Both the position numbers and the translations under genes were made by a program. DNA of 64,000 nt from Sulfurospirillum cavolei. Its GTDB lineage: Bacteria; Campylobacterota; Campylobacteria; Campylobacterales; Sulfurospirillaceae. The stretch covers positions 310,001-374,000 of the forward strand of contig NZ_AP014724.1 of assembly GCF_001548055.1 (NCBI RefSeq), given 5' to 3'. The number at the start of each line of letters is the position of its first letter. Position 1 is the stretch's first letter. Positions 7,998 through 42,438 of this stretch are shown piece by piece. The notes below the pieces were generated by a model. The model saw only the letters and a program-made list of their open reading frames with translations. It was not told where the DNA came from and ran no database searches.

Positions 7998-8411
7998 TTA
8001 GGAGAGTTTTTCTAAAAGACTAAAAAGCGTGTTTTTTTCTTCGAGCGTAAGCCGATCGGACAAACTTTTGCGAAACGCGAGAACGGTCGCTTCGGAGCGT
8101 TGGAGTACGTCGTATCCTTCGTGCGTCACTTCGATGAGGTTGGCGCGCTTATCGTGTTCGATCGATTTTTTCACGATCAGCCCTTTTTTCTCGAGCGAAT
8201 CAAGGGTACGGCTGATCGTTGCGGGACTTTTGTTGAGCATGGCGCAAAGCGTTATTTGGTTGACATGTTCGCATGTCGTTAAGATTTCAAGCAAAATGCG
8301 CTGTTCGGGTGCAATCCCTTCCACGCTTAAAAGCGTCGTGATCGTTTGGTTGATTCGATTGGCGGTACGTGCGATACGAAAAGCGATGCTGTCGTTGACG
8401 GGTAGATTCAT
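7998..8411 (-). CDS. MarR-family transcriptional regulator
   Basis: A winged-helix regulator of 137 residues from ATG 8411, the normal size for MarR. The DNA-binding part is VNQITLCAMLNKSPATISRTLDSLEKKGLI followed by the wing with DKRANLIEVT. A longer reading from 8627 would add about 72 residues of low-complexity charged sequence and run through the operator-like palindrome and into the neighbouring gene, so I reject it. It heads an operon with an MFS and a DMT carrier, the usual setting for ligand-responsive efflux control. Confidence 0.88.
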   Translation of the reverse strand: MNLPVNDSIAFRIARTANRINQTITTLLSVEGIAPEQRILLEILTTCEHVNQITLCAMLNKSPATISRTLDSLEKKGLIVKKSIEHDKRANLIEVTHEGYDVLQRSEATVLAFRKSLSDRLTLEEKNTLFSLLEKLS

Positions 8412-23114: not shown

Positions 23115-24440
23115 ATGGATAGAATGACTCTTAAAAAAGCGTACAAAGAGGGGCTAAGCCCTCGAACGCTGGTCGCGACGATTAAAGAGACGATAGCACG
23201 GCACGCTTCCAATCCGATTTGGATTTACGTGTTAAGCGATGAAGAACTCGAACCGTACCTTGCGCGTTTGGAGACGCAAGAGGTGCATAGCCTTCCGTTG
23301 TACGGTATCCCGTTTGCGATTAAGGATAATATCGACTTGGCGGGGATTCCCACGACGGCGGCATGTCCCGATTTTCGTTATGTTCCCCAAACGTCGGCAT
23401 ACGTCGTCGAGCGTTTGATCGAAGCGGGAGCGATTCCGATCGGTAAAACCAATCTCGATCAATTTGCGACGGGGCTTGTCGGTACGCGCTCGCCTTACGG
23501 GGCGTGTCACAATAGCATCGACGCACGCTATATTTCCGGCGGCTCTAGCTCGGGCAGTGCGGTCAGCGTGGCTTTGGATATGGTCGTTTTTTCATTGGGT
23601 ACCGATACGGCGGGTTCGGGCAGAGTGCCGGCGGCGTTTAACGCCTTGGTCGGTTTTAAGCCTTCCAAAGGCGTCGTGAGCACGAGCGGCGTCGTACCGG
23701 CGTGCCGCAGTTTGGATTGCATCTCGTTGTTTTGCCAAAACGCGCAAGACGCGAGCTTTATTTTTGACGTGATGGCGGATTTTGACGCGGGCGACGTGTA
23801 TGCGAGAGCGTTACCCGCTCGGGTGCGCGACGTGCCCGAACATTTTTATTTCGGAGTGCCTAAAAAAGCAGATTTGGCGTTTTTCGGCGATGAGGAAGCC
23901 AAAGCTTTGTTTGACGCAAGCGTAGAGCGTTTGATCGCTCTGGGCGGCACTCTCAAAGAGATCGATTTTGCGCCGTTTTTAGAAGCGGCCGATTTGCTTT
24001 ATTTTGGCCCTTGGGTTGTGGAGCGTTACGTGGCGACCAAAACACTTTTGGAAAGTTCGCCTCAGAGCTTTTTAGACGTGACCAAAGGCATTATCGAGCA
24101 AGGAAAAAGTAAGAGTGCGGAAGCGTATTTTGAAGCGGAGTACCGATTGAAGGCTTATCGAAGAAAAGCCGAGGAGGTTCTTGAAACGGTCGATTTTATC
24201 GTGACGCCGACGACGGGGACGATCTACACGATCGAAGAGGTCAACGCCGATCCGATCAGGCTCAATACGAATTTGGGGTACTACACCAACTTTATGAATT
24301 TGCTCGATTGCGTCGCGTACGCGTTGCCCGCAGGTCGAAGAAATAACGGTTTGCCGTTTGGCATCACGATCTTTGCGGATCATTTTAACGATAAAGCGCT
24401 CCTTGCGATGGGTGCGCGTTACATGAAGGAGAACGTATGA
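23115..24440 (+). CDS. atzF: Allophanate hydrolase, amidase part (split AtzF)
   Basis: A 441-residue amidase-signature enzyme that hydrolyses allophanate to ammonia and CO2. The Ser-cisSer-Lys triad is visible: Lys in YGIPFAIKDNIDLAG, the cis-Ser in YISGGSSSGSAVSV and the nucleophile Ser in GTDTAGSGRVPAAF. Usual AtzF proteins are near 600 residues with a C-terminal domain in the same chain; here that domain is a separate gene that begins at an ATGA junction with this stop. It is the last step of the guanidine pathway. Confidence 0.9.
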   Translation: MDRMTLKKAYKEGLSPRTLVATIKETIARHASNPIWIYVLSDEELEPYLARLETQEVHSLPLYGIPFAIKDNIDLAGIPTTAACPDFRYVPQTSAYVVERLIEAGAIPIGKTNLDQFATGLVGTRSPYGACHNSIDARYISGGSSSGSAVSVALDMVVFSLGTDTAGSGRVPAAFNALVGFKPSKGVVSTSGVVPACRSLDCISLFCQNAQDASFIFDVMADFDAGDVYARALPARVRDVPEHFYFGVPKKADLAFFGDEEAKALFDASVERLIALGGTLKEIDFAPFLEAADLLYFGPWVVERYVATKTLLESSPQSFLDVTKGIIEQGKSKSAEAYFEAEYRLKAYRRKAEEVLETVDFIVTPTTGTIYTIEEVNADPIRLNTNLGYYTNFMNLLDCVAYALPAGRRNNGLPFGITIFADHFNDKALLAMGARYMKENV

Positions 24441-24838
24441 GTCAGTGGATCGAAGTGGGCGTTTGCGGCGCACACATGCAGGGTTTGCCTTTAAACCATC
24501 AGTTGGTTGCTTTGCAAGCGACGTACGTCAAAACGTGTAAAACGGCCGTAGGATACCGCTTGTTCGACGTTCCCGAAAAAGTGCCGCCGCGTCCGGGACT
24601 GCTCAAAGATCGCACAAGCCCTTATGCAATCGAGCTGGAAGTATGGCAAATGCCTTTGGAAAACTTCGGAGCGTTCATGGTGCAAATCGCCTCGCCTTTA
24701 GGCATCGGAACGCTTGAACTAGACGACGGAAGCAGCGTCAAAGGCTTTATCTGCGAATGCGACGCGGTAAAAAATGCAAAAGAGATCAGTGAATACGGAG
24801 GTTGGAAAGCATATATCGCAAAGGCTCAACACGTTTGA
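24437..24838 (+). CDS. Allophanate hydrolase C-terminal domain as a separate protein
   Basis: A 133-residue protein matching the C-terminal domain of AtzF, a gamma-glutamylcyclotransferase-like fold: VGVCGAHMQGLPLNHQL at the start, YAIELEVWQMPLENFGAFMV in the middle and VKGFICECDA near the end. In fused enzymes this domain decarboxylates N-carboxyurea-type intermediates or supports assembly. The gene overlaps the amidase gene by 4 bp. Nothing suggests decay: the ATG is in place and the domain is complete, so this is a functional split rather than a frameshift. Confidence 0.85.
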   Translation: MSQWIEVGVCGAHMQGLPLNHQLVALQATYVKTCKTAVGYRLFDVPEKVPPRPGLLKDRTSPYAIELEVWQMPLENFGAFMVQIASPLGIGTLELDDGSSVKGFICECDAVKNAKEISEYGGWKAYIAKAQHV

Positions 24839-24869
24839 TCGTAAAACGACGGAAGCGTTCAAGGAAAAT

Positions 24870-24909
24870 CGATTGTGAAGTACGGCGAGAGGGTGTAGGA
24901 ATCGAACCT
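24870..24909. repeat. Left attachment repeat of the island (tRNA-Sec 3' end copy)
   Basis: A 40-bp stretch identical to 33499-33538. It copies the last 24 nt of tRNA-Sec plus 16 nt downstream (contains GGTGTAGGAATCGAACCT). After 24909 the sequence departs from the tRNA, so this is not a second tRNA gene. With the right copy it bounds the AT-rich island, which identifies it as an attachment-site remnant. Confidence 0.88.
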
Positions 24910-25071
24910 CTCACAACTCTCGATTTATTTTGAGGGTAGACTCAATAACGCTTTAAATTAATGATACAATTTTAGGAGCTACTCGGTGTTGACACAGAAT
25001 TTTGAACACTCCCAACCTACCAAGAGACAGTCAACCGTCCCCCCCATAGTCTGTCTTCGTGTTGAAGCTTA
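24910..25071. other. Island left edge; possible insertion-sequence end
   Basis: A non-coding stretch. At 24987-25013 there is a segment that, read on the minus strand, begins GGGAGTGTTCAAAATTCTGT and then GTCAACA; this resembles the terminal inverted repeats of IS256-family elements. No partner repeat or transposase is visible. A short inverted repeat (AGACAG near 25025 with CTGTCT near 25050) frames a C-run. The AIPR gene ends at 25072. Confidence 0.35.
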
Positions 25072-27120
25072 TTATTCTAGGTGTAATATGTTTAAACCAT
25101 CTTTTTTTGCATTTTCATATAATTCGTATAAAATTTTTGATTGTTTGACTGATGGTAATGGGATAAGACCTAATGAATATTTGTTTAAAATATCTAATTG
25201 CATTAAAGAAACACTTGATTTAATTTCATCGCGACTGTAGTATTCACTAAGATTTCCCCAAGAACTTTTTGGTGTTTTCACAATGAATGACTGTATCTCT
25301 ATATCTGAAATTATTTTTTTCTCTTTTTTATCTTCCCTTTTATCGTATTTCTCATCTTCTGTATCAATTAATAGCTCTTCGCTAATATCAAGATTTAAAT
25401 TCAAGCTTTTTACGCTATCCCAACATAATTTTTTCTTGCACCATTGACCAATATTTGCATTACCTTCAGGAGGATTAGTTATATTTTCATAAACTGCTTC
25501 TGCAACAATTTGAATTATATTCGACAAAGTTTTTGGCAAATGTTGTTCTTCCCAAATAATACTGAAATTTAAATATTGGTTGTTACTTTTTAAAAAATAT
25601 GATAAATAAGATAATGTATAGGCTACAGCTTGTGCTCTATACCCTCCATCATACCAAGGTGCTTCAGAAACCATTTTTTCTGTTTCTTTAAACATTATGA
25701 TTCTTGAAATTGAGTCTTTGAAATATTTTTCTGTAATAGCAAGTTTGTTGTCTTCTAGTTTTTTGACAACTTCTTCAGAATATTCTGCAAAACTATATTG
25801 TGCACCTTTTGAAACAATATCAGGTTTTTGATCCCAAACATTTTCACTTTTAGATAGATATGTTTTATCAATAACCTGTTTTCTTGGATTTTCTAATTCA
25901 AACTGCTTTTTACCTGATGGAGTTAAATAAGCTTGTTCATTAAGGTATTCACCTCTTACACGCTCATAGAACCAATGAGTGCGTCTTTGTGATCCTTTTG
26001 TTGCAGGTGCCCATACTCTTCGCGAATATTCCTTAAAATCTTTATGCAATAGCTCATTAGAATCAAAGTCAGAGTTATTGATTTTATTCTGAGTATTTGC
26101 ATATCGCGAAACATCTTGAACAAAAATATTTTGTTGTTCTTTATTTTTAACCACAGATAACTTCATTTGTACATTTACATATGATACATCTAATTTACTA
26201 TTTTTATTTGCTGCATAAATGGAAGATGTTGTTTGTCCACCATTTACAATTTGAAAATCCTTAATTTTAACAATATTCCCTTGTCCATTTAATTCAACCT
26301 CAGATGCAGTTGCTGTAATCCCATTGTTATATGCAAAAAACATTTGAGGTCTATTATTAATTGTTTTCCAGAGTCCCTTATTGACATTCCCTTTGAATTG
26401 TAAAAACGTTCTTACATTCTGTTCAAATAATTTTTGTCCAAATTTTTCATATATAGCTACTAAAAGATTGCCATTTAAGTATGTTAAATACGAAGAATAT
26501 TCATCTGAATTAGTTTCTATTGGCAAACATGGTAAATCGACTTCTATTTCAAAACCTCCACCTGTATGAGTTGAAAGAAAAATTTTATATAAATATTCGA
26601 TATCGATTACTAAAAATTCTGTTTTAATTCCCTGATTTTCCTCTGCTGGTAATTCTAACAAGTTTCTTGTAGCTTTTCCATCTGTAATGATGATAAGCTT
26701 TAGTTTTTTAATTTTATTTTTTAAATAGTAATCATGTATATTATAAGACATAGAATGGTGTTCATATGCAGAATCCATTTGATGATACAATCCATCTAAA
26801 CTTTGCATAAAAAAAGATTTTAATTTTTTGAATTTGGACTCTATTTGGCTCATAGTCAATGTTTGAATAGTATCTTCTTGATTAAAATGATGAACTAAGA
26901 GTGAAAAAATTTGACGCTCTTCATCATAATCATATCCATAAACTTCTAATCCTTTTTTGTTATAATCTGCAACAGTATAGTTTGTTGACAAATCCCCAAT
27001 GGCAACTAATTCTTCACAAACATTTTCAAAAAATGCTTGAGCTTTGAGTAGACCTCTACTTTCTGCATCAGAAAAAATTGATTGTAAAAAATCCTGATGA
27101 AATTCTTCCAAAGTAACCAT
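25072..27120 (-). CDS. AIPR-family abortive-infection phage-resistance protein
   Basis: A 682-residue protein of the AIPR family. The most typical blocks are FAYNNGITATASEVEL (about 265-280) and IVNGGQTTSSIYAAN (about 297-311), with an upstream FLQFKGNVNKGLWKT region. It is the last gene of the five-gene operon, 4 bp after the PD-(D/E)XK gene, and ends near the left edge of the island. AIPR proteins recur in restriction and abortive-infection loci; the biochemical activity is poorly defined, possibly nucleic-acid related. Codon use is AT-rich like the rest of the island. Confidence 0.88.
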   Translation of the reverse strand: MVTLEEFHQDFLQSIFSDAESRGLLKAQAFFENVCEELVAIGDLSTNYTVADYNKKGLEVYGYDYDEERQIFSLLVHHFNQEDTIQTLTMSQIESKFKKLKSFFMQSLDGLYHQMDSAYEHHSMSYNIHDYYLKNKIKKLKLIIITDGKATRNLLELPAEENQGIKTEFLVIDIEYLYKIFLSTHTGGGFEIEVDLPCLPIETNSDEYSSYLTYLNGNLLVAIYEKFGQKLFEQNVRTFLQFKGNVNKGLWKTINNRPQMFFAYNNGITATASEVELNGQGNIVKIKDFQIVNGGQTTSSIYAANKNSKLDVSYVNVQMKLSVVKNKEQQNIFVQDVSRYANTQNKINNSDFDSNELLHKDFKEYSRRVWAPATKGSQRRTHWFYERVRGEYLNEQAYLTPSGKKQFELENPRKQVIDKTYLSKSENVWDQKPDIVSKGAQYSFAEYSEEVVKKLEDNKLAITEKYFKDSISRIIMFKETEKMVSEAPWYDGGYRAQAVAYTLSYLSYFLKSNNQYLNFSIIWEEQHLPKTLSNIIQIVAEAVYENITNPPEGNANIGQWCKKKLCWDSVKSLNLNLDISEELLIDTEDEKYDKREDKKEKKIISDIEIQSFIVKTPKSSWGNLSEYYSRDEIKSSVSLMQLDILNKYSLGLIPLPSVKQSKILYELYENAKKDGLNILHLE

Positions 27121-27124
27121 AATA

Positions 27125-28075
27125 TTAATCCTTCAGACTACTTAATTTGATTTCAAATGGTTTACATTTAAGTAAATCTATTTTGTATTTAACTTGTAAG
27201 ATATCATTATGTAATTGAATAGGCGTAATTTTAGGAAAATCACTTTTTATATCATAAGCGTGTATTGAATCAATCAAAAAAGAATATAATTTTTGGATTT
27301 GACTCGAAAAATAGCCATATTCTAATAATTTTGTTTCAAATAAGTTGAAAATTTCATAATCTGTCTCTTTGAGATATTGTTTAATATCATTAATAAGTTC
27401 GACAATAGTTTTTCCATTTTTTGACGGCGATATACCATATGCTATTAGAAATAATGGCTTTTTTTCACTATAAAGCTGATAGGCAGAAGATATTGTGATA
27501 ATAGGTGCTTTGCTTGTTTTATAAGTTTTGACTTCAAACACTTTTTGAGATAGCAAAAAATCTTGTTTATCAAAATCCGGTCCAACCCAAGATAGGATAG
27601 CATTCTTAATCCCTTCTTGTGGAATTACAAAATCAAGCATACATTGCAATTCACCAAAAAGTCCCATTTGAACTTCAATACCAAATTCATAGCTACCTTT
27701 TAATTTGAGAAATTGATGCCATTTTGTAATTCGTTGTTCAACGATTTCAATTAAATAATTTTTGTTTGTCTCTTTTGAAATAACATCAATTAGATCTTTG
27801 CACAAAGTAAAAAAGACATCTAAATACTCGTCAGGATGTTCTAAAAACAAAATGAGTTCACTTTGTTCAGTGCTACAGCGCCTTGTAATAGAAATGCCTT
27901 TTAGGTTATTAATCAGCTCCTTGTTAATATGATGATTTATGCAAGTAAGATTTACATAGAAGCCACAACGTGAATTAATGTCTTTTAACCAAAACAAGCC
28001 ATGGGTATCTATTCCACTTACTCGTCTTTGAGAATTTAAAGGCATTTCATCCCATGGATAATGTGCTTTAATCAT
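27125..28075 (-). CDS. PD-(D/E)XK motif protein (DUF4420), candidate restriction nuclease
   Basis: A 316-residue protein from ATG 28075. The nuclease-like core shows Glu142 in MGLFGEL, then VGPDFDK (PD at 166-167) and FEVKTYK (Glu181, Lys183), the D-(D/E)xK pattern of PD-(D/E)XK enzymes. The family is found next to Z1, AIPR and DNA methylase genes. I prefer ATG 28075 (8-bp overlap with the Z1 gene) over ATG 28093, since the protein then starts MIKAHYPWDEMP. It is likely the cleaving subunit of the system; this is inference from the fold. Confidence 0.87.
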   Translation of the reverse strand: MIKAHYPWDEMPLNSQRRVSGIDTHGLFWLKDINSRCGFYVNLTCINHHINKELINNLKGISITRRCSTEQSELILFLEHPDEYLDVFFTLCKDLIDVISKETNKNYLIEIVEQRITKWHQFLKLKGSYEFGIEVQMGLFGELQCMLDFVIPQEGIKNAILSWVGPDFDKQDFLLSQKVFEVKTYKTSKAPIITISSAYQLYSEKKPLFLIAYGISPSKNGKTIVELINDIKQYLKETDYEIFNLFETKLLEYGYFSSQIQKLYSFLIDSIHAYDIKSDFPKITPIQLHNDILQVKYKIDLLKCKPFEIKLSSLKD

Positions 28076-30701
28076 CAAAATCCATCTCCTCAAATTCGTT
28101 AATTTTAATCATAACTGTATTCATAGTAAGTTCAACTGTTTGTGTGCTGTCTAATCCATTATCTGGGAAACATACACCAAATGCAGGTAAAAACTTAACA
28201 AAATCCGTATTTAGAATGTGAAGCATTAATATAGGGTTTTTGAGCCTTTTTCTTATAAATTTTGTTTGTTCTTTAGGTTCTGTAAAAGATTTTTTTTTCA
28301 TTTCTTGAATATCAGAATCTCCAAGTAAAATCACCTCTGGTGAACCTGAAGAAATTTTTCGTTGTCCTATTTCATAGTAATCATTTGATTGTTGATATTT
28401 TTTTCTCAATTCGGTAGGAATTATTAAATTAGCGATTTGACACTCGGTAGACGCTCCTGTATATAAAACAATATCCCATTTTGTATCAATTGTTTCTGCA
28501 TATTTTTGAATGTGTAATATAGGCATAATTCCCTGTATGCCTCGTGCATCATATATTTTAAAATTCTTAAGAAAATCAGCTACAAATGATTTGTCTTGAC
28601 CTCTCCAAATATATTTACCAGATTCAATTTTAGGGAGTTTTCTGATTAATTGTTCCATTAAATCAAAATTGTATTGGTGAATTTCTAAATCTTTAGAAAA
28701 CCTAACAGTTTCTTTTAAATGCCCATTTAGATTCATCGAATGAAGAAACTTTTTTGTATTTTTTAGTTTATTTTTTGCAGTAATTTGTAAAAGGCTATCA
28801 GGATGTTGCCGAACAGCTAACCCAAAGTCTAATGGTGTTAGCTTATAAGTAGCCATTAATCTCAAGTTTTGTATTAAATCATCTGTTGCTTCAATAATTT
28901 GAGTAAAATTGTCCATCATTTCTTCTGACATATAAATTTTACATAAATCTTCGTATCCATCTCTATAACCAAACCAACGTCCCATCTGCATTAAAGTATC
29001 ATAAAAGACAGTGTTCCGTAAAAAATAACTAATACTTAATCCTTCTAACGTAAAACCTCGTGCAACGCTTGTACCACCAATAACAATAGCATTTGTTGGT
29101 CTATCTTTACGATATTCTAATGCAATTGTTCTTTTTTGATGTACTTCTCTCACAATAACCGTTTTTGTTGAGTAATGTAATTGCTCTTTAATTTCAGTCC
29201 AACCAAACTCAATATTCATATAATATTTTTCAAAAGTTATTCGTAAATCTTGTATATTTGCACTTTGTTCTTCGGCATTTTTTAATAAAATATAAGAAGA
29301 TATATCAGATTTAAGTAATGATAAATAATTTTCAACAAAAAGAGATAGTTTTCTGTGGACATCTGTAAAACGTGTTGCGTGAATTAACATACTATTGTGT
29401 TTTTGTTCTTGACCTCTTTTCCATCGAATAGCAATATTTAATAAAAAGAGCCTAATAGCTTCAAAAATGCTCTCAGGAAGAAATTGAGGTACAAAATCTT
29501 TTTTATGTCCTAATGGTAAAATATTTTTATAGTCATTTTCTGGTATTGAAATTAAATACCTTTTGTCTGATTCTATAAAAATTTTTTTTGCACCAAAATA
29601 ATTTGTTGGTGCATCTAACGTATAGATAAAATCACGAGGAAATAGATCTTCACCATATTTATCATGATTTACCTCATGGTTAATAAAAATATTGGCAAAA
29701 GGTGTTGCTGTATAAGCTACATAGCAACTTTTGTGAAATAGGCTAAGTAATTTTCTAAGTCTTTCATTAATCTTCGTTGGATCATTTTCATCATTTGTAT
29801 TAATAGAAGCATAATCTGATTCGTCATCGATCAAGAGCATTGCATGATTGGAAATTTTATTTCTATATTGATTTTCGAGCCAAGAAATTACATTTTGAAT
29901 CGTTGTAGTATTTTTTTTAATTACTAAAAGAATGGGTGTCGTATTGGTCTCAAAATTTGTTCCTTGTGAATTTCTTCTTGCATCATTTATATTAAAATCA
30001 TTTTCAATAGTGGTTAAACTAATAGGTAATTTTTCAAGTGGAGCATTTCCTATACCAGCACCAATTTGTTGCCCTTTGTCTACTCCAACAAAAGCTTCAT
30101 TTATTCTTTCTTGTGTTTGATTGCGTAAATTATTAATTCCTCCAGCTATAACAACGATAAACTTATAACCTGCATCTGCCGCTTTGCATATTAATGATGA
30201 ATAATTTGCTGTTTTGCCAGATTGGACATGCCCAACAACCATACCATAAATATTAAATGTATTATTTTCTGGATTTTCAAGATTGTCTATAACCATATCA
30301 GAATCTATATCAATTGTTTTAATCACTTCTTCAGGCAAAGATTTTTTTAAATAAAGTTTATATCTGCCCCAATAAAAATTTTCAGATTCTTGCTGTTTTT
30401 GTCCTGTCCACCATGTAGTATCACGTTTTTGTTGTTCATCTCCCTGAATAAGAATCCCTTGATCCATTCGTATATTAAATAATGTTTCTAACTCATTCCT
30501 CATTCGACTTAAATCATTATCTGATAAATGAACAACATCAACATTAAAAATAGCATTGAGAATAACTTTTGGAAATGATATTAAAATTTTTACATTGTTA
30601 AATTCATCATCTAAATCATCTTTATCTAAAAGACCTTTTTCGCTTTGTATTTCTTGTAATTTTCCAAAAAGATAGGTTTTAATTTTTTGATAATCATTCA
30701 C
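28068..30701 (-). CDS. Z1-domain helicase-like ATPase
   Basis: An 877-residue protein with a Z1 domain, a superfamily-2-like helicase/ATPase module. Walker A is VVGHVQSGKTAN (about 155-166), Walker B is LLIDDESDYAS (near 285-295), then SVARGFTLEGLSISYFLRN and the arginine-finger-like QMGRWFGYRDGYEDLCKIYM (both in the middle to later part). Start is GTG 30701, which overlaps the TGA of the preceding MORC-type frame in a GTGA junction. That tight coupling shows the upstream frame was meant to be read through to 30698. Likely role: ATP-driven DNA translocation or remodelling for the restriction system. Confidence 0.9.
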   Translation of the reverse strand: MNDYQKIKTYLFGKLQEIQSEKGLLDKDDLDDEFNNVKILISFPKVILNAIFNVDVVHLSDNDLSRMRNELETLFNIRMDQGILIQGDEQQKRDTTWWTGQKQQESENFYWGRYKLYLKKSLPEEVIKTIDIDSDMVIDNLENPENNTFNIYGMVVGHVQSGKTANYSSLICKAADAGYKFIVVIAGGINNLRNQTQERINEAFVGVDKGQQIGAGIGNAPLEKLPISLTTIENDFNINDARRNSQGTNFETNTTPILLVIKKNTTTIQNVISWLENQYRNKISNHAMLLIDDESDYASINTNDENDPTKINERLRKLLSLFHKSCYVAYTATPFANIFINHEVNHDKYGEDLFPRDFIYTLDAPTNYFGAKKIFIESDKRYLISIPENDYKNILPLGHKKDFVPQFLPESIFEAIRLFLLNIAIRWKRGQEQKHNSMLIHATRFTDVHRKLSLFVENYLSLLKSDISSYILLKNAEEQSANIQDLRITFEKYYMNIEFGWTEIKEQLHYSTKTVIVREVHQKRTIALEYRKDRPTNAIVIGGTSVARGFTLEGLSISYFLRNTVFYDTLMQMGRWFGYRDGYEDLCKIYMSEEMMDNFTQIIEATDDLIQNLRLMATYKLTPLDFGLAVRQHPDSLLQITAKNKLKNTKKFLHSMNLNGHLKETVRFSKDLEIHQYNFDLMEQLIRKLPKIESGKYIWRGQDKSFVADFLKNFKIYDARGIQGIMPILHIQKYAETIDTKWDIVLYTGASTECQIANLIIPTELRKKYQQSNDYYEIGQRKISSGSPEVILLGDSDIQEMKKKSFTEPKEQTKFIRKRLKNPILMLHILNTDFVKFLPAFGVCFPDNGLDSTQTVELTMNTVMIKINEFEEMDFDD

Positions 30702-32110
30702 TGTAATAATTCCTTTCTATCTTTATAAAGTTCAGTTTTCAATAGTTTTTCAATGTATTCCTGACTTAATCCTATCTCTTTAAGTTTATGTGCCAAATCT
30801 TTAATTTCATCTTCCGACATAAGTTCATCTTGATTTAATTGATGTGGTTGCTGTTGCTGATAAGATTCAATCGCAGCTAATGGTAAGAAAGCTTCTAAAC
30901 TTTTAAGATAAGAATTAAATAAAAATTGGGTTTCAGGGGATATCTGGTTTATTATTGTTTGATAAATAGGATGTTCTTTATTAATTCCAAAATAAATTTG
31001 ATTATTTTCTGGAATAATATTCCAAAATCGTGTAATAGTTTTATCTTTTATACTTGATGCTCTTTTTATAAAAGGTTTAATACCTTCTTTAACAACTTCA
31101 TGAATGATTCTTTTTAAATCTTGCTTGATTTCAGGTACAGGATTTGCAGTGGATTTTTTAATGTCAATTCCCCAAAATGTATCTTAATCATTAGAAATAT
31201 CAATTTTAATCCTGACGAGTTTATGTGCATCTGTTGCCTTATGCAACCCCCACCAAGTACCATATATTAAAAGTCGATTTCCTCTATAAAAATAAAAACC
31301 TTGAGACTTAATATATCCATCTTCCGTGCCAAATTCTTCCCATTCTTGCTGCGAAACATTTTTATGGTGAGGTAAAATATATGGTGTAATTTCAATAGAT
31401 GAGCCAAATAATTTTATTTTCTCTGTGCTAATTTCTCTTGTAAATTGATTCATTGTATTAAAGGGATTAAAAGGAATCAATAGACTCTTGTTGACAAAAA
31501 TTTTTAATTTTTTAGCTCCAGGTATACCTTCTACATATCTATGAAATACCAATGATAAGTGTTTTTTGAGCTTATCAATTCTTTGTGCGAAGCTCTCCTT
31601 TTCATAACGATCAAATTTCTCCCATATAACAAGTGTCCCAGATTGATTATTTTCTAAATTTTGAACAAGAGGATAATATTTATATTCGGAATATTCTGGT
31701 GTTAACAATTCCCATTCATTTTGCAATGATATATGTTCTAAATCCCATTGTTTTATGTTGATCTCATTGTTTTTTTTAGAAATTAATGTCAATTTCATAC
31801 ATTGAGAAAAAGAGGCAGTTTTTAAACCTAAACCAAATCTACCTAAATCATGTTTTTCTCTTCTTAAATCAGGGTTTTTAGTTGCCAATCTCATAGCTTC
31901 CACAAGTTCTGAGTCTGTCATACCGCAACCATTGTCTAACATACAAAATAATAACTCAGGTTTAGCGATTGCATGTATATCAATTTGAGTAGCTTCTGCG
32001 GATATACTATTATCTAATACGTCTGCGACAGCTATTTCGAATGTATATCCTACATCCCGAAGTGATTTAATAAAATTATTTAAATTTGGACGAACAATAG
32101 TTATTTTCAT
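30698..32110 (-). pseudogene. MORC/MutL-type GHKL ATPase with an internal TAA
   Basis: Full frame 32110 to 30698, 470 codons before the final TGA, with one in-frame TAA at 31184-31186 (codon 309). The N-terminal part is a GHKL ATPase: helix with ADVLDNSIS (30-37), DNGCGM (59-64) and GLGLKTAS (93-100), followed by the MORC/MutL-like transducer region. After the TAA the same frame continues DTFWGIDIKKSTANPVPEIK and ends in a helical tail with KELLQ, whose TGA overlaps the Z1 GTG start. No base is gained or lost, so this is a point nonsense change (TTA Leu to TAA would fit the context), a sequencing error, or read-through. The 35-bp overlap with the methyltransferase gene is intact. Whether the 308-residue N-terminal part works alone is unknown. 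Confidence 0.85.
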
Positions 32111-33122
32111 TTAAAACTTTACCAATTTCTTTTGCAATCTTTTCTACCATAGGGACTACAACAGAATTGCCAGCTTGTTTATACAAACTTACACGAGAGA
32201 TATTAGAAGGAAGTAAAAATTTATTTGGAAAGCCTTGTAAATTAAAACACTCTTTTGGAGTTAGTCTACGGGGTATACCATTATCCAAAATAATAGGAAT
32301 ATTATGGCCACCTCCTCCCATATTTGCAGTTAAAGTTGGGCATACAGCTGATTTATTTGCTCGAACATAATAACGTCTATATTGATAGACAACTTGTGTG
32401 TTAATTACTGCTTCTTGGATTTTTAGATGAATAGGATTAGATAAGTTATTATACAGGTCGGATTCTAACACTGTTGTTTTATCCAAAAATGAATGAATTT
32501 CTCTTCTTGGTTTTATTTCTTTTTTAGGAATAACAAATGAAGATGAAAATGGTGCAAAGATCGAAGAGTTAGGGTTTATATTTGCTTTAATTGGTTTTGC
32601 AAAACTATATTCAGCCTCATCTTTGAATCCGACGATATAAATTCTCTCTCTTCCTTGAGGAACATCGGTATGTTCTGCTGCATTCAAAATAAATGGTATA
32701 AATGAATATCCAACTTCTTTCAATTTATCTCTAATAATGGCAAATGTTTTTCCATTGTTATGAGTTGCTAACGTTTTGACATTTTCTAAAAAATACGCTT
32801 TTGGTTGTAAGTCATTTAAAAATCGTATAACTTCAAAAAAAAGTTTTCCTCGTTCATCATCAAATCCTTTTCCATGACCAGCCTGAGAAAATGGTTGACA
32901 GGGAAATCCTGCTGTTAAAACATCAATTGGAGATAATTTCTTCGTATTTAAACTTTGAACATCCTGATCGAATAAAAGAGTATCAGTGTGATTGAGTTTG
33001 TATGTAATACATGCTTTATTATCAAATTCATTTGCCCATATAACACTAAAAGAAGCATTTTTGAATGCTTGGCACACTCCTCCAACACCGGCAAATAAAC
33101 TTCCAACAGAATAATTGTTCAT
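32076..33122 (-). CDS. DNA (cytosine-5) methyltransferase
   Basis: A 348-residue Dcm-type enzyme. Motif I is VGSLFAGVGGVCQAF (6-20), motif IV GFPCQPFSQAG carries the catalytic Cys75, motif VI is ENVKTL (near 114), motif VIII-like RRYYVR, and motifs IX-X are near the end (RRLTPKECFNLQGFP; KQAGNSVVVPMVEKIA). All key residues are present. It is the first gene of the island operon and overlaps the ATPase gene by 35 bp. It should protect host DNA from the linked nuclease; the target sequence cannot be inferred. Confidence 0.95.
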   Translation of the reverse strand: MNNYSVGSLFAGVGGVCQAFKNASFSVIWANEFDNKACITYKLNHTDTLLFDQDVQSLNTKKLSPIDVLTAGFPCQPFSQAGHGKGFDDERGKLFFEVIRFLNDLQPKAYFLENVKTLATHNNGKTFAIIRDKLKEVGYSFIPFILNAAEHTDVPQGRERIYIVGFKDEAEYSFAKPIKANINPNSSIFAPFSSSFVIPKKEIKPRREIHSFLDKTTVLESDLYNNLSNPIHLKIQEAVINTQVVYQYRRYYVRANKSAVCPTLTANMGGGGHNIPIILDNGIPRRLTPKECFNLQGFPNKFLLPSNISRVSLYKQAGNSVVVPMVEKIAKEIGKVLNENNYCSSKFK

Positions 33123-33498
33123 ATAATAACTTTACAAAAAATATTTTTTATGATTATAGTGGCTTTATTGTTTTATAGCAATACAATATTTTGTAATTAT
33201 CAGACGAAGTTTAGTCCTATTAGTTGGAAATAATTTAAGCATAGTATTTTGATTTAAAACTTGATATAACTAAGTTAGATTGGTTAAATCGCCTTCACAA
33301 TTTCATGGAGATGAGTTCAGTGTTTAAAAAAGTCATATTAATGATAATAAGAAGTTTTATACCGAGAGATTGAAAAAGAGTATTATTGTAAAGAACTTGC
33401 TAAAGAATTTGCTATTTGCAATAGATTTGTAAAAAAAATAATTTCAGCATAGGATTTTTTATTTCGTAGCTTTTTTCAAAGTTATAATTCGTAAAAAC
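33123..33498. other. Island right edge, non-coding with a possible HTH remnant
   Basis: About 375 bp of AT-rich DNA between the methyltransferase start and the attachment repeat. It must hold the operon promoter on the minus strand. On the plus strand a 32-codon frame ending at about 33450 reads EIEKEYYCKELAKEFAICNR and on to a stop, which resembles a helix-turn-helix of a transposase or regulator and may be a decayed remnant. No integrase is visible. Confidence 0.4.
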
Positions 33499-33538
33499 CG
33501 ATTGTGAAGTACGGCGAGAGGGTGTAGGAATCGAACCT
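33499..33538. repeat. Right attachment repeat (in the tRNA-Sec 3' end)
   Basis: The partner of 24870-24909: 40 identical bp, 24 of them inside tRNA-Sec. Just outside it the two copies differ by one base (T against C) and then share four As. This copy keeps the tRNA gene whole, so it is the junction at the intact-gene side. Confidence 0.88.
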
Positions 33539-33612
33539 ACCGGCAAACGGTCAACCGCCCACCCGATCGGCTTTGAAGGCCGTGGTGCACACCAGAGTCA
33601 CATACCCCCCTC
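33515..33612 (-). tRNA. selC: tRNA-Sec (anticodon TCA)
   Basis: A 98-nt tRNA on the minus strand. Anticodon loop CTTCAAA (anticodon TCA, reading UGA) sits on the CGGC/GCCG stem. The variable arm is long (a helix around GGTTGACC), the T arm is GTAGG-TTCGATT-CCTAC, and the acceptor has the extended form of tRNA-Sec, with 5' GAGGGGG against 3' CCCTCTC and one GU pair. The encoded 3' end reads CCG rather than CCA after the discriminator G. Together with selD it shows that the host decodes UGA as selenocysteine. It is the integration site of the island. Confidence 0.92.
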
Positions 33613-39397: not shown

Positions 39398-40825
39398 CTA
39401 TTTTTCGAATTTATCTTTTTCGGAGAGACCGAAATTGCGGGGTTTGATCATATTTTCAGGCTTGATGATGTCTTCAAGCTCTTCTTTGGCTAAAAGACCG
39501 CGTTCGAGAACGATGTCGTAAACCGAACGATGGGTTTCCAAAGCTTCCTTGGCGACTTTCGTGGAGTTTTCATAGCCGATAAAAGGGTTGAGCGCGGTCA
39601 CAAGACCGATGCTGTTAAGCACCAAGGCTTTGCATCGTTCCGAATTGGCGGTAATTCCGTCCACGCACGTATACGCAAGCGTTTCAAACGCATTTCGCAT
39701 CATGTTGATCGAATTGAAAAGATTAAACGCAATGACGGGCTCGAAAACGTTAAGCTGAAGTTGACCGCCCTCGCATGCCATCGTAACCGTGATGTCGCTC
39801 CCGATGACTTGAAAGCAGACTTGGTTGACCACTTCGGGAATGACGGGATTGACTTTGCCGGGCATAATAGAACTGCCCGGTTGCATCGCGGGAAGATTGA
39901 TTTCGCCAAAGCCCGTACGAGGGCCTGAACTTAAAAGCCTAAGATCGTTGCAGATTTTAGACATCTTGGTCGCAACGCGTTTGAGTACGCCCGAAATCTG
40001 TACGTACGCACCCGTATCCTGCGTCGCCTCGACCAGATCGCCCGCCGTCACGAAAGGTCGTCCCGTCACCTCTTGAAGCTTGGCTTCGACGGTCTTGGCA
40101 TAATCGGGATGTGCATTGATACCCGTACCGATTGCCGTAGCTCCCATATTGATTTCGCGTACGAGTTGTCTCGCTTCGCTAACCCTTTGAATGTCTTCTC
40201 CGATCATAACCGCATACGTTCGAAACTCTTGCTCTAAGCTCATCGGTACGGCGTCTTGAAGTTGGGTTCTTCCCATTTTAATGACGTCTTTGAATTCGCT
40301 TGCTTTCTTGGCAAACGAATCTTTGATAATCCGCATCGAATCGCCGAGTTCCCCAAGCTTCTCGTAAAGAGCGACCCTTAACGCCGTAGGGTATGCGTCG
40401 TTAGTGGATTGAGAAAGATTGACGTCGTTGTTGGGATGTAAAAACTGATACGCACCCTTAGGATGCCCCATCGACTCTAAACCGATGTTGGCGATGACTT
40501 CGTTGGCATTCATATTGGTCGAAGTACCCGCACCTCCTTGAATCATATCGACGACAAATTGATCGTGAAACTTTCCGGAGATAATGTGCTCGCACGCTTC
40601 GACGATAGCGTTTTTCTTTGCCTCCGAGAGTAAATGCAGTTCGTAATTGGCTAAAGCGGCTGCTTTTTTAACCTTGGCGATGGATTCGATAAAAGTCGGA
40701 AAACTACCGAGCGTAACGCCCGTAATGTGAAAGTTCTCCGCCGCTCGCGCGGTTTGAACGCCGTAATAACATTCGTCGGATATCTCTTTATCGCCGATTA
40801 AGTCGTGTTCGATTCTGGTTGACAT
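39398..40825 (-). CDS. aspA: Aspartate ammonia-lyase, copy 1
   Basis: A 475-residue aspartase that converts aspartate to fumarate and ammonia. The fumarase/aspartase signature GSSIMPGKVNP is near residue 320, with NMNANEVIANIGLE, QSTNDAYPTALRVAL and GRTQLQDAVPMSL upstream. It starts MSTRIEHDL. Codons from residue 4 or so to the end match copy 2 at 41008-42438 with no difference in protein sequence; see findings. It lies in the asparaginase-Dcu-aspartase block and supplies fumarate for respiration. Confidence 0.96.
   Translation of the reverse strand: MSTRIEHDLIGDKEISDECYYGVQTARAAENFHITGVTLGSFPTFIESIAKVKKAAALANYELHLLSEAKKNAIVEACEHIISGKFHDQFVVDMIQGGAGTSTNMNANEVIANIGLESMGHPKGAYQFLHPNNDVNLSQSTNDAYPTALRVALYEKLGELGDSMRIIKDSFAKKASEFKDVIKMGRTQLQDAVPMSLEQEFRTYAVMIGEDIQRVSEARQLVREINMGATAIGTGINAHPDYAKTVEAKLQEVTGRPFVTAGDLVEATQDTGAYVQISGVLKRVATKMSKICNDLRLLSSGPRTGFGEINLPAMQPGSSIMPGKVNPVIPEVVNQVCFQVIGSDITVTMACEGGQLQLNVFEPVIAFNLFNSINMMRNAFETLAYTCVDGITANSERCKALVLNSIGLVTALNPFIGYENSTKVAKEALETHRSVYDIVLERGLLAKEELEDIIKPENMIKPRNFGLSEKDKFEK
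39401..40815. repeat. Long direct repeat, copy A (aspA body)
   Basis: About 1415 bp repeated at 41014-42428 with a constant offset of 1613, so no insertion or deletion. The translations on both strands are the same and I saw no base difference when comparing line by line. The match begins and ends inside the genes, and the flanks are unrelated. Confidence 0.9.
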
Positions 40826-41007: not shown

Positions 41008-42438
41008 TTAGCGTTTTTCGAATTTATCTTTTTCGGAGAGACCGAAATTGCGGGGTTTGATCATATTTTCAGGCTTGATGATGTCTTCAAGCTCTTCTTT
41101 GGCTAAAAGACCGCGTTCGAGAACGATGTCGTAAACCGAACGATGGGTTTCCAAAGCTTCCTTGGCGACTTTCGTGGAGTTTTCATAGCCGATAAAAGGG
41201 TTGAGCGCGGTCACAAGACCGATGCTGTTAAGCACCAAGGCTTTGCATCGTTCCGAATTGGCGGTAATTCCGTCCACGCACGTATACGCAAGCGTTTCAA
41301 ACGCATTTCGCATCATGTTGATCGAATTGAAAAGATTAAACGCAATGACGGGCTCGAAAACGTTAAGCTGAAGTTGACCGCCCTCGCATGCCATCGTAAC
41401 CGTGATGTCGCTCCCGATGACTTGAAAGCAGACTTGGTTGACCACTTCGGGAATGACGGGATTGACTTTGCCGGGCATAATAGAACTGCCCGGTTGCATC
41501 GCGGGAAGATTGATTTCGCCAAAGCCCGTACGAGGGCCTGAACTTAAAAGCCTAAGATCGTTGCAGATTTTAGACATCTTGGTCGCAACGCGTTTGAGTA
41601 CGCCCGAAATCTGTACGTACGCACCCGTATCCTGCGTCGCCTCGACCAGATCGCCCGCCGTCACGAAAGGTCGTCCCGTCACCTCTTGAAGCTTGGCTTC
41701 GACGGTCTTGGCATAATCGGGATGTGCATTGATACCCGTACCGATTGCCGTAGCTCCCATATTGATTTCGCGTACGAGTTGTCTCGCTTCGCTAACCCTT
41801 TGAATGTCTTCTCCGATCATAACCGCATACGTTCGAAACTCTTGCTCTAAGCTCATCGGTACGGCGTCTTGAAGTTGGGTTCTTCCCATTTTAATGACGT
41901 CTTTGAATTCGCTTGCTTTCTTGGCAAACGAATCTTTGATAATCCGCATCGAATCGCCGAGTTCCCCAAGCTTCTCGTAAAGAGCGACCCTTAACGCCGT
42001 AGGGTATGCGTCGTTAGTGGATTGAGAAAGATTGACGTCGTTGTTGGGATGTAAAAACTGATACGCACCCTTAGGATGCCCCATCGACTCTAAACCGATG
42101 TTGGCGATGACTTCGTTGGCATTCATATTGGTCGAAGTACCCGCACCTCCTTGAATCATATCGACGACAAATTGATCGTGAAACTTTCCGGAGATAATGT
42201 GCTCGCACGCTTCGACGATAGCGTTTTTCTTTGCCTCCGAGAGTAAATGCAGTTCGTAATTGGCTAAAGCGGCTGCTTTTTTAACCTTGGCGATGGATTC
42301 GATAAAAGTCGGAAAACTACCGAGCGTAACGCCCGTAATGTGAAAGTTCTCCGCCGCTCGCGCGGTTTGAACGCCGTAATAACATTCGTCGGATATCTCT
42401 TTATCGCCGATTAAGTCGTGTTCGATTCGCGTAGGCAC
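41008..42438 (-). CDS. aspA: Aspartate ammonia-lyase, copy 2
   Basis: A 476-residue aspartase, MPTRIEHDL at the start and one extra C-terminal Arg; otherwise the same protein as copy 1. Same signature (GSSIMPGKVNP) and same reaction. The upstream region (42439-42560) differs wholly from that of copy 1 and has a perfect TTTACATGTAAA, so the two genes probably respond to different signals or add dose. Both reading frames are intact. Confidence 0.96.
   Translation of the reverse strand: MPTRIEHDLIGDKEISDECYYGVQTARAAENFHITGVTLGSFPTFIESIAKVKKAAALANYELHLLSEAKKNAIVEACEHIISGKFHDQFVVDMIQGGAGTSTNMNANEVIANIGLESMGHPKGAYQFLHPNNDVNLSQSTNDAYPTALRVALYEKLGELGDSMRIIKDSFAKKASEFKDVIKMGRTQLQDAVPMSLEQEFRTYAVMIGEDIQRVSEARQLVREINMGATAIGTGINAHPDYAKTVEAKLQEVTGRPFVTAGDLVEATQDTGAYVQISGVLKRVATKMSKICNDLRLLSSGPRTGFGEINLPAMQPGSSIMPGKVNPVIPEVVNQVCFQVIGSDITVTMACEGGQLQLNVFEPVIAFNLFNSINMMRNAFETLAYTCVDGITANSERCKALVLNSIGLVTALNPFIGYENSTKVAKEALETHRSVYDIVLERGLLAKEELEDIIKPENMIKPRNFGLSEKDKFEKR
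41014..42428. repeat. Long direct repeat, copy B (aspA body)
   Basis: The partner of 39401-40815; see that entry. Because the intergenic sequences do not match, a plain recent tandem duplication of gene plus flanks is not seen; conversion between older copies or duplication of the coding part only would fit. Confidence 0.9.

What the first reader, a model, noticed from the sequence alone, without database searches (positions are those of the whole stretch)
25072..33122. Five-gene MORC-Z1-nuclease-AIPR-methyltransferase defence operon
Seen: one minus-strand operon with four tight junctions (35-bp overlap, GTGA overlap, 8-bp overlap, 4-bp gap) encoding a C5 methyltransferase, a GHKL ATPase of MORC/MutL type, a Z1 helicase-like ATPase, a PD-(D/E)XK protein and an AIPR protein. 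Known: genomics work has predicted restriction systems that join MORC/MutL-type ATPases with Z1 proteins, nucleases and methylases. Inference: this is a complete anti-phage unit, with two ATPases to load and move on DNA, a nuclease, and an AIPR effector that may act in abortive infection. I know of no worked-out mechanism for this set.
Basis: partly seen in the sequence, partly recalled or inferred. Interest (0 to 1): 0.85.

Follow-up and report, generated by a model that had tools for sequence, protein, structure and literature searches.

The report
MZA-like defence island, MORC gene broken
This is a mobile island carrying a known kind of five-gene anti-phage operon (DNA methylase, MORC ATPase, helicase-like protein, nuclease, AIPR protein), but one stop codon cuts its MORC ATPase short, so this copy is probably no longer able to defend its host.

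Summary
The five genes are real (25072-33122, minus strand) and the stated junctions check out, except one. The GHKL/MORC gene is not intact. All 17 aligned relatives have a sense codon there (Gln in the closest). The lost third holds the end of the S5 domain, including a lysine invariant in 39 aligned homologues. No second copy exists in the genome.

The gene set is not new. It matches the 'Type II' system predicted in 2022 (PMC9523054) and is a distant relative of the validated MZA system. Order MORC-Z1-DUF4420-AIPR is kept in 72 of 80 named loci from many phyla, mostly with a C5 methyltransferase nearby.

The operon fills an AT-rich island (29% versus about 48% GC) between a tRNA-Sec gene and a 45-bp copy of its 3' end. 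A sister species carries a different, integrase-bearing element at the same site; this island has no integrase.

Best reading: a horizontally acquired, formerly complete MZA-like system, recently inactivated by one nonsense mutation, with the methyltransferase probably still expressed. A structural lead: the AIPR model resembles a restriction-endonuclease fold plus a ParB/SspE-like domain. Ordinary in kind; modest interest.

The parts
24865..24909 (.). distal 45-bp direct repeat: copy of the 3' 23 nt of tRNA-Sec plus 22 bp beyond (att-like)
   Evidence: the repeat finder D2, 44/45 identical to 33494-33538; tRNA 3' part matched at G000:C1:334887-334909
25072..27120 (-). AIPR protein (MzaE-like), 682 aa
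   Evidence: PF10592 2.7e-95 and PF22879 2.5e-34; MzaE profiles
27125..28075 (-). DUF4420 PD-(D/E)XK protein (MzaD-like); ATG at 28075 (TTG possible at 28093); D178/E187/K189 (numbered from the TTG) conserved
   Evidence: PF14390 8.8e-62; conserved residues
28068..30701 (-). Z1 SF2-helicase-like ATPase (MzaC-like), GTG start, 877 aa
   Evidence: PF10593 1.1e-73; Walker A GHVQSGKT and DDES kept
30698..32110 (-). mzaB-like MORC ATPase gene, interrupted: ORF 31184-32110 (308 aa), then an open but presumably untranslated remnant 30698-31183 (161 codons)
   Evidence: read-through model matches MORC2/3/4
31184..31186 (-). premature in-frame TAA
   Evidence: sense codon in all 17 aligned relatives
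32076..33122 (-). C5 cytosine DNA methyltransferase, 348 aa
   Evidence: PF00145 7.4e-78; orthologues 68-69% identical upstream of the MORC gene in G195 and G236
33494..33538 (.). proximal 45-bp direct repeat, overlapping the 3' end of tRNA-Sec
33516..33612 (-). tRNA-Sec (selC), intact: integration site
   Evidence: ARAGORN; Rfam RF01852 55.1 bits

Best explanation
A horizontally acquired genomic island (24865-33538) at the 3' end of tRNA-Sec carries an MZA-like ('Type II') defence operon. When intact, such an operon most likely acts like restriction-modification: the C5 methyltransferase marks host DNA; the MORC ATPase closes as an ATP-dependent dimer clamp on unmodified or abnormal DNA; the Z1 ATPase remodels or moves on it; the DUF4420 PD-(D/E)XK protein, possibly helped by the AIPR protein, cuts. 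In this genome the MORC subunit is truncated before the end of its S5 domain, losing an invariant lysine and the C-terminal domain. Restriction is therefore most likely off, while the upstream methyltransferase is untouched and may still methylate. Shown: gene content, truncation, island structure, conservation elsewhere. Inferred: every functional step, and that the mutation is recent.
For: Gene families. Order B-C-D-E in 72 of 80 named loci, with a C5 methyltransferase within about 800 bp in 57 of those 72. Type II composition as described in PMC9523054. TAA in mzaB against Gln, Leu, Glu or Val codons in all 17 aligned relatives, Gln in the nearest. K319, W313 and D310 are invariant in 39 homologues and lie after the stop. 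The MORC2/3/4 fold match runs to residue 348-349, so truncation at 308 cuts the ATPase/transducer module. No second MORC copy. The 3' remnant keeps 10 of 11 columns conserved at 90%, and relative-rate counts show no strong decay, so the stop looks recent. The only in-frame starts left after the stop are codons 122, 130 and 148 of 161. Island: GC 28-31% against about 48%, 45-bp repeats, tRNA-Sec, and a different integrase-bearing element at the same site in G398.
Against: The stop rests on one assembled genome, so a base-call error or strain polymorphism cannot be excluded. Conservation of the 3' remnant could also mean that some full-length protein is still made. There are no methylation, expression or phage data. 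The roles given to Z1, DUF4420 and AIPR are inferred from families and folds.
Confidence: 0.75

Rival explanations
1. The stop is a sequencing or assembly error, or a polymorphism of the sequenced culture. The natural population has an intact, working MZA-like system.
For: The downstream 161 codons keep frame and conservation, and all other genes of the operon look intact.
Against: Single-contig genome at 99.99% completeness. The neighbouring genes checked (urea carboxylase, EamA, amidase, SLT, response regulator, kinase, asparaginase, DcuA) give good family matches without obvious frame breaks.
Confidence: 0.13
2. The MORC subunit works in two pieces or by stop-codon read-through: the GHKL+S5 fragment and the C-terminal part are both made and assemble, or a little full-length protein is made.
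For: The 3' remnant is conserved and directly coupled to the mzaC start by the TGA/GTG overlap.
Against: The codon is TAA. No start codon in the remnant before codon 122 of 161. The cut falls inside the S5 domain, before an invariant lysine. No relative in the set shows this split except the otherwise decayed Helicobacter labacensis copy.
Confidence: 0.06
3. The operon is not a DNA-degrading restriction system but an abortive-infection system in which AIPR is the killing effector and the other proteins sense invading DNA.
For: AIPR/AbiU1 families are linked to abortive infection, and AIPR proteins were predicted to be toxins (PMC3506569; PADLOC AbiU profile).
Against: The AIPR model resembles a restriction-endonuclease fold plus a ParB/sulfiredoxin/SspE-like domain, as in DNA-acting effectors, and the operon has a dedicated PD-(D/E)XK protein with conserved D/E/K. 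None of this excludes killing.
Confidence: 0.25

Closest known systems
Putative 'Type II' defence system of Miller, Stern and Burstein 2022 (PMC9523054)
   Same: Z1 protein of about 900 aa, DUF4420-type PD-(D/E)XK protein, C5 methyltransferase, AIPR protein and MORC-type ATPase.
   Different: This copy has a nonsense codon in the MORC gene and no transcriptional-regulator gene on the island. That paper did not test function.
MZA (mzaABCDE), validated anti-phage system (Gao et al. 2020, known to me and via PMC9523054; the paper itself is not held)
   Same: Homologues of MzaB, C, D, E in that order.
   Different: Scores far below the NCBIfam equivalog cut-offs (for example MzaC 436 against 1500 bits). 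The first gene is a methyltransferase, whereas mzaA is described as a sigma factor.
MORC restriction-modification operons (Iyer, Abhiman and Aravind 2008, PMC2292703)
   Same: GHKL+S5 MORC-type ATPase with SF2 helicase-like protein, RE-fold nuclease and cytosine methylase; AIPR noted as a frequent neighbour.
   Different: There the MORC proteins are described as having GHKL and S5 domains; here the encoded product lacks the end of the S5 domain.
VcSduA, GHKL-Shedu (PMC12137116)
   Same: GHKL ATPase coupled to a PD-(D/E)XK nuclease in phage defence; both activities needed.
   Different: Single polypeptide of paraMORC3 type; no Z1, AIPR or methyltransferase.

Membership tests
Miller 2022 'Type II' (MZA-like) system | Z1 + DUF4420 + C5 methyltransferase core with AIPR and MORC genes, adjacent | tested here: met
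Miller 2022 'Type II' (MZA-like) system | all subunits intact (needed for a working copy) | tested here: not met
   MORC ORF ends at 308 aa by TAA; sense codon in all aligned relatives
MZA (mzaABCDE) | homologues of MzaB-MzaE in order | tested here: met
   PADLOC and NCBIfam profile matches
MZA (mzaABCDE) | equivalog-level scores for MzaB-E | tested here: not met
   242, 436, 130 and 284 bits against cut-offs 850, 1500, 420 and 1050; MzaB here is the 308-aa fragment
MZA (mzaABCDE) | MzaA sigma-factor gene | tested here: not met
   the only other gene is a C5 methyltransferase; mzaA described as a sigma factor in PMC9523054
MORC ATPase family | GHKL domain with N-, G1- and G2-type motifs | tested here: met
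   PF13589 5.5e-39; conserved D33/N34, D59-G63, G90-G95 region; MORC2 best PDB sequence match
MORC ATPase family | complete S5/transducer domain with catalytic-type basic residue in the encoded product | tested here: not met
   invariant K319 and residues 309-349 lie after the stop; that K319 is the catalytic residue is inferred
Restriction-modification | methylation-dependent self protection and cleavage of unmodified DNA | not testable with these tools
   needs methylome and plating data
tRNA-integrated genomic island | flanking direct repeats that duplicate the tRNA 3' end; atypical composition | tested here: met
tRNA-integrated genomic island | own integrase | tested here: not met
   no integrase ORF in 24865-33538; own-genome integrase matches lie elsewhere

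The most novel reading that the evidence does not exclude
The TAA is tolerated or regulated: the MORC ATPase acts as two chains or by rare read-through, so that the restriction arm is kept switched down (the methyltransferase on, the rest translated weakly) and can be restored when phage pressure returns.
Probability: 0.06. Interest if true: 0.55.

Novelty: new member of a known kind. Interest (0 to 1): 0.3.

Why it matters
It corrects a claim of a complete new defence unit: the set is a recognised but mechanistically unsolved MZA-like family, and this copy is probably inactive. If true, it is a natural case of a restriction-type system losing its restriction arm while keeping its methyltransferase. 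The AIPR model (restriction-endonuclease-like fold plus ParB/SspE-like domain) gives a testable idea for the least understood subunit of a family spread over many phyla.

Tried and rejected
Selenocysteine recoding suggested by the neighbouring tRNA-Sec: rejected, because the stop is TAA and the relatives have Gln, Leu, Glu or Val there. Re-initiation after the stop: no in-frame ATG/GTG/TTG before codon 122 of 161. A second MORC gene elsewhere in the genome: none. The methyltransferase as MzaA: rejected, since mzaA is described as a sigma factor. Sequence-profile support for AIPR being related to DUF262/GmrSD: none (hhalign probability below 1%, same as controls), so the ParB/SspE-like match rests on structure only. 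Canonical PD-(D/E)XK residues in the AIPR N-domain: not conserved in the alignment, and the window's group has VYGY or similar where most others have VDGY, so nuclease activity there is doubtful. PDB sequence relatives of Z1 and AIPR: none. HEPN domain in AIPR (PMC3506569): not seen in the fold matches, which is not a test.

Full report
Observation. The five families are present on the minus strand at 25072-33122: C5 methyltransferase (PF00145, 7e-78), GHKL ATPase (PF13589, 5e-39), Z1 protein (PF10593, 1e-73), DUF4420 PD-(D/E)XK protein (PF14390, 9e-62) and AIPR protein (PF10592, 3e-95). Three of the four stated junctions are exact. The fourth is not. The GHKL ORF ends at TAA 31184-31186 after 308 aa, and 161 further codons stay open in the same frame up to the TGA that overlaps the Z1 GTG start. 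Those codons match the MzaB profile at positions 307-409, straight after the first fragment's 2-305.

Is the stop shared? No. Of 17 aligned relatives in the same phylum, none has a stop there; the codon is CAA in the nearest and TTA/TTG, GAA or GTC in others. Among 80 named loci, 77 carry an uninterrupted MORC ORF of 430 aa or more. The one other split copy is in Helicobacter labacensis, which is decayed in several genes. The window genome has no second MORC gene. The 3' remnant keeps 10 of 11 columns conserved at 90% or more, and relative-rate counts do not show marked decay, so the mutation looks recent, or is an assembly error.

Consequence. Read through, the protein models as a MORC ATPase: VIA Z about 22 to MORC3, MORC4 and MORC2, aligned from about residue 7-17 to 348. 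The encoded product stops at 308. It loses the end of the S5/transducer domain, including K319, invariant in 39 homologues, and the whole C-terminal part. Iyer et al. note that the S5 domain usually supplies a conserved basic residue that may act like a catalytic finger. That K319 is this residue is my inference. The other four proteins keep nearly all conserved residues, including Walker A GHVQSGKT and DDES of Z1 and D178/E187/K189 of DUF4420. The methyltransferase lies upstream of the stop and should not be affected; mzaC has its own AAGGA-like site but may suffer polarity.

What it is. PADLOC and NCBIfam name the four downstream proteins MzaB-E, but far below equivalog cut-offs. Miller, Stern and Burstein (PMC9523054) describe a putative 'Type II' system of exactly this composition, about 20% identical to the validated mzaBCDE, whose mzaA is a sigma factor. 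The window operon fits that Type II set. In the phylum 21 of 397 genomes have a Z1 relative. In named genomes from Campylobacterota, Bacteroidota, Bacillota, Pseudomonadota, Chloroflexota and others, 72 of 80 loci show MORC-Z1-DUF4420-AIPR in order. A C5 methyltransferase lies within about 800 bp in 57 of these 72: 26 directly upstream on the same strand, the rest downstream or inverted. These 80 are the best matches of a search seeded with such operons, so they show conservation, not prevalence. Z1 relatives also lie on plasmids and viral contigs.

Setting. The operon sits in an island of 28-31% GC in a genome region of about 48%. It lies between tRNA-Sec (33516-33612) and a 45-bp copy of the tRNA 3' end and adjoining bases (24865-24909 against 33494-33538, 44/45 identical). 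In the sister genome G398 the same two flanks enclose a different 7-kb insertion that starts with a tyrosine integrase (Arm-DNA-bind_3 + Phage_integrase) next to tRNA-Sec. It has an internal 15-bp att-like copy, so it may be two elements in tandem. Close relatives of that integrase (73-98% identical) sit at tRNA-Sec in G379, G228 and G350. The window's island has no integrase, and the genome has no close relative of this integrase. It could be the distal half of a former tandem whose integrase-bearing half has left, or a passenger moved in trans (inference).

How it probably works when intact. The methyltransferase marks self. The MORC ATPase, like MutL and eukaryotic MORC proteins, likely forms an ATP-closed dimer on DNA. 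Z1 is an SF2-like ATPase, and DUF4420 is the likely nuclease. The AIPR model matches restriction-endonuclease folds in residues 1-187 (1y88 Z 9.9, FokI 9.0, MspJI 8.6, HamA 7.1, SduA 7.0). Residues 204-355 match ParB-N (6.8), sulfiredoxin (4.9) and SspE (4.5). These Z values are modest, Foldseek gave no E below 0.001, and profile comparison to DUF262 found nothing. A link of AIPR to DndB was stated earlier (PMC3506569). So AIPR may be a DNA-acting sensor or nuclease rather than a plain toxin; this is a lead only.

Verdict. Real operon, known kind, probably inactive in this genome. The finding's 'complete anti-phage unit' is not supported.

Noticed in passing
window 39398-40825 and 41008-42438 (minus): Two tandem fumarase/aspartase-family lyase genes whose products are 474/475 identical, next to a DcuA/DcuB-type C4-dicarboxylate transporter gene and an asparaginase gene: a very recent duplication or gene conversion.
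   Followed up: partly
window 23115-24838: Allophanate hydrolase is split into an amidase ORF and a separate AH_C ORF with a 4-bp overlap; the same split is seen in sister genome G398 (L052), downstream of a 1200-aa urea carboxylase-like protein.
   Followed up: partly
L052 2806-9763 (genome G398): tRNA-Sec of a sister species carries a 7-kb insertion with tyrosine integrase and an internal att-like 15-bp copy at 8025-8039, suggesting tandem elements; tRNA-Sec is an integration hotspot in this genus.
   Followed up: partly
window 33130-33493: AT-rich gap between the methyltransferase and tRNA-Sec with only short broken readings, one resembling a helix-turn-helix transposase start; possible remnant of lost island genes.
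   Followed up: no
L089 / L012 (Helicobacter labacensis): A second decayed MZA-like operon: MORC split with several stops, DUF4420 and AIPR truncated or split, Z1 intact.
   Followed up: no
window 25072-27120: Within the AIPR N-domain the window and its nearest relatives have VYGY or similar where most others have VDGY, so any metal-binding acid there is lost in this subgroup.
   Followed up: partly
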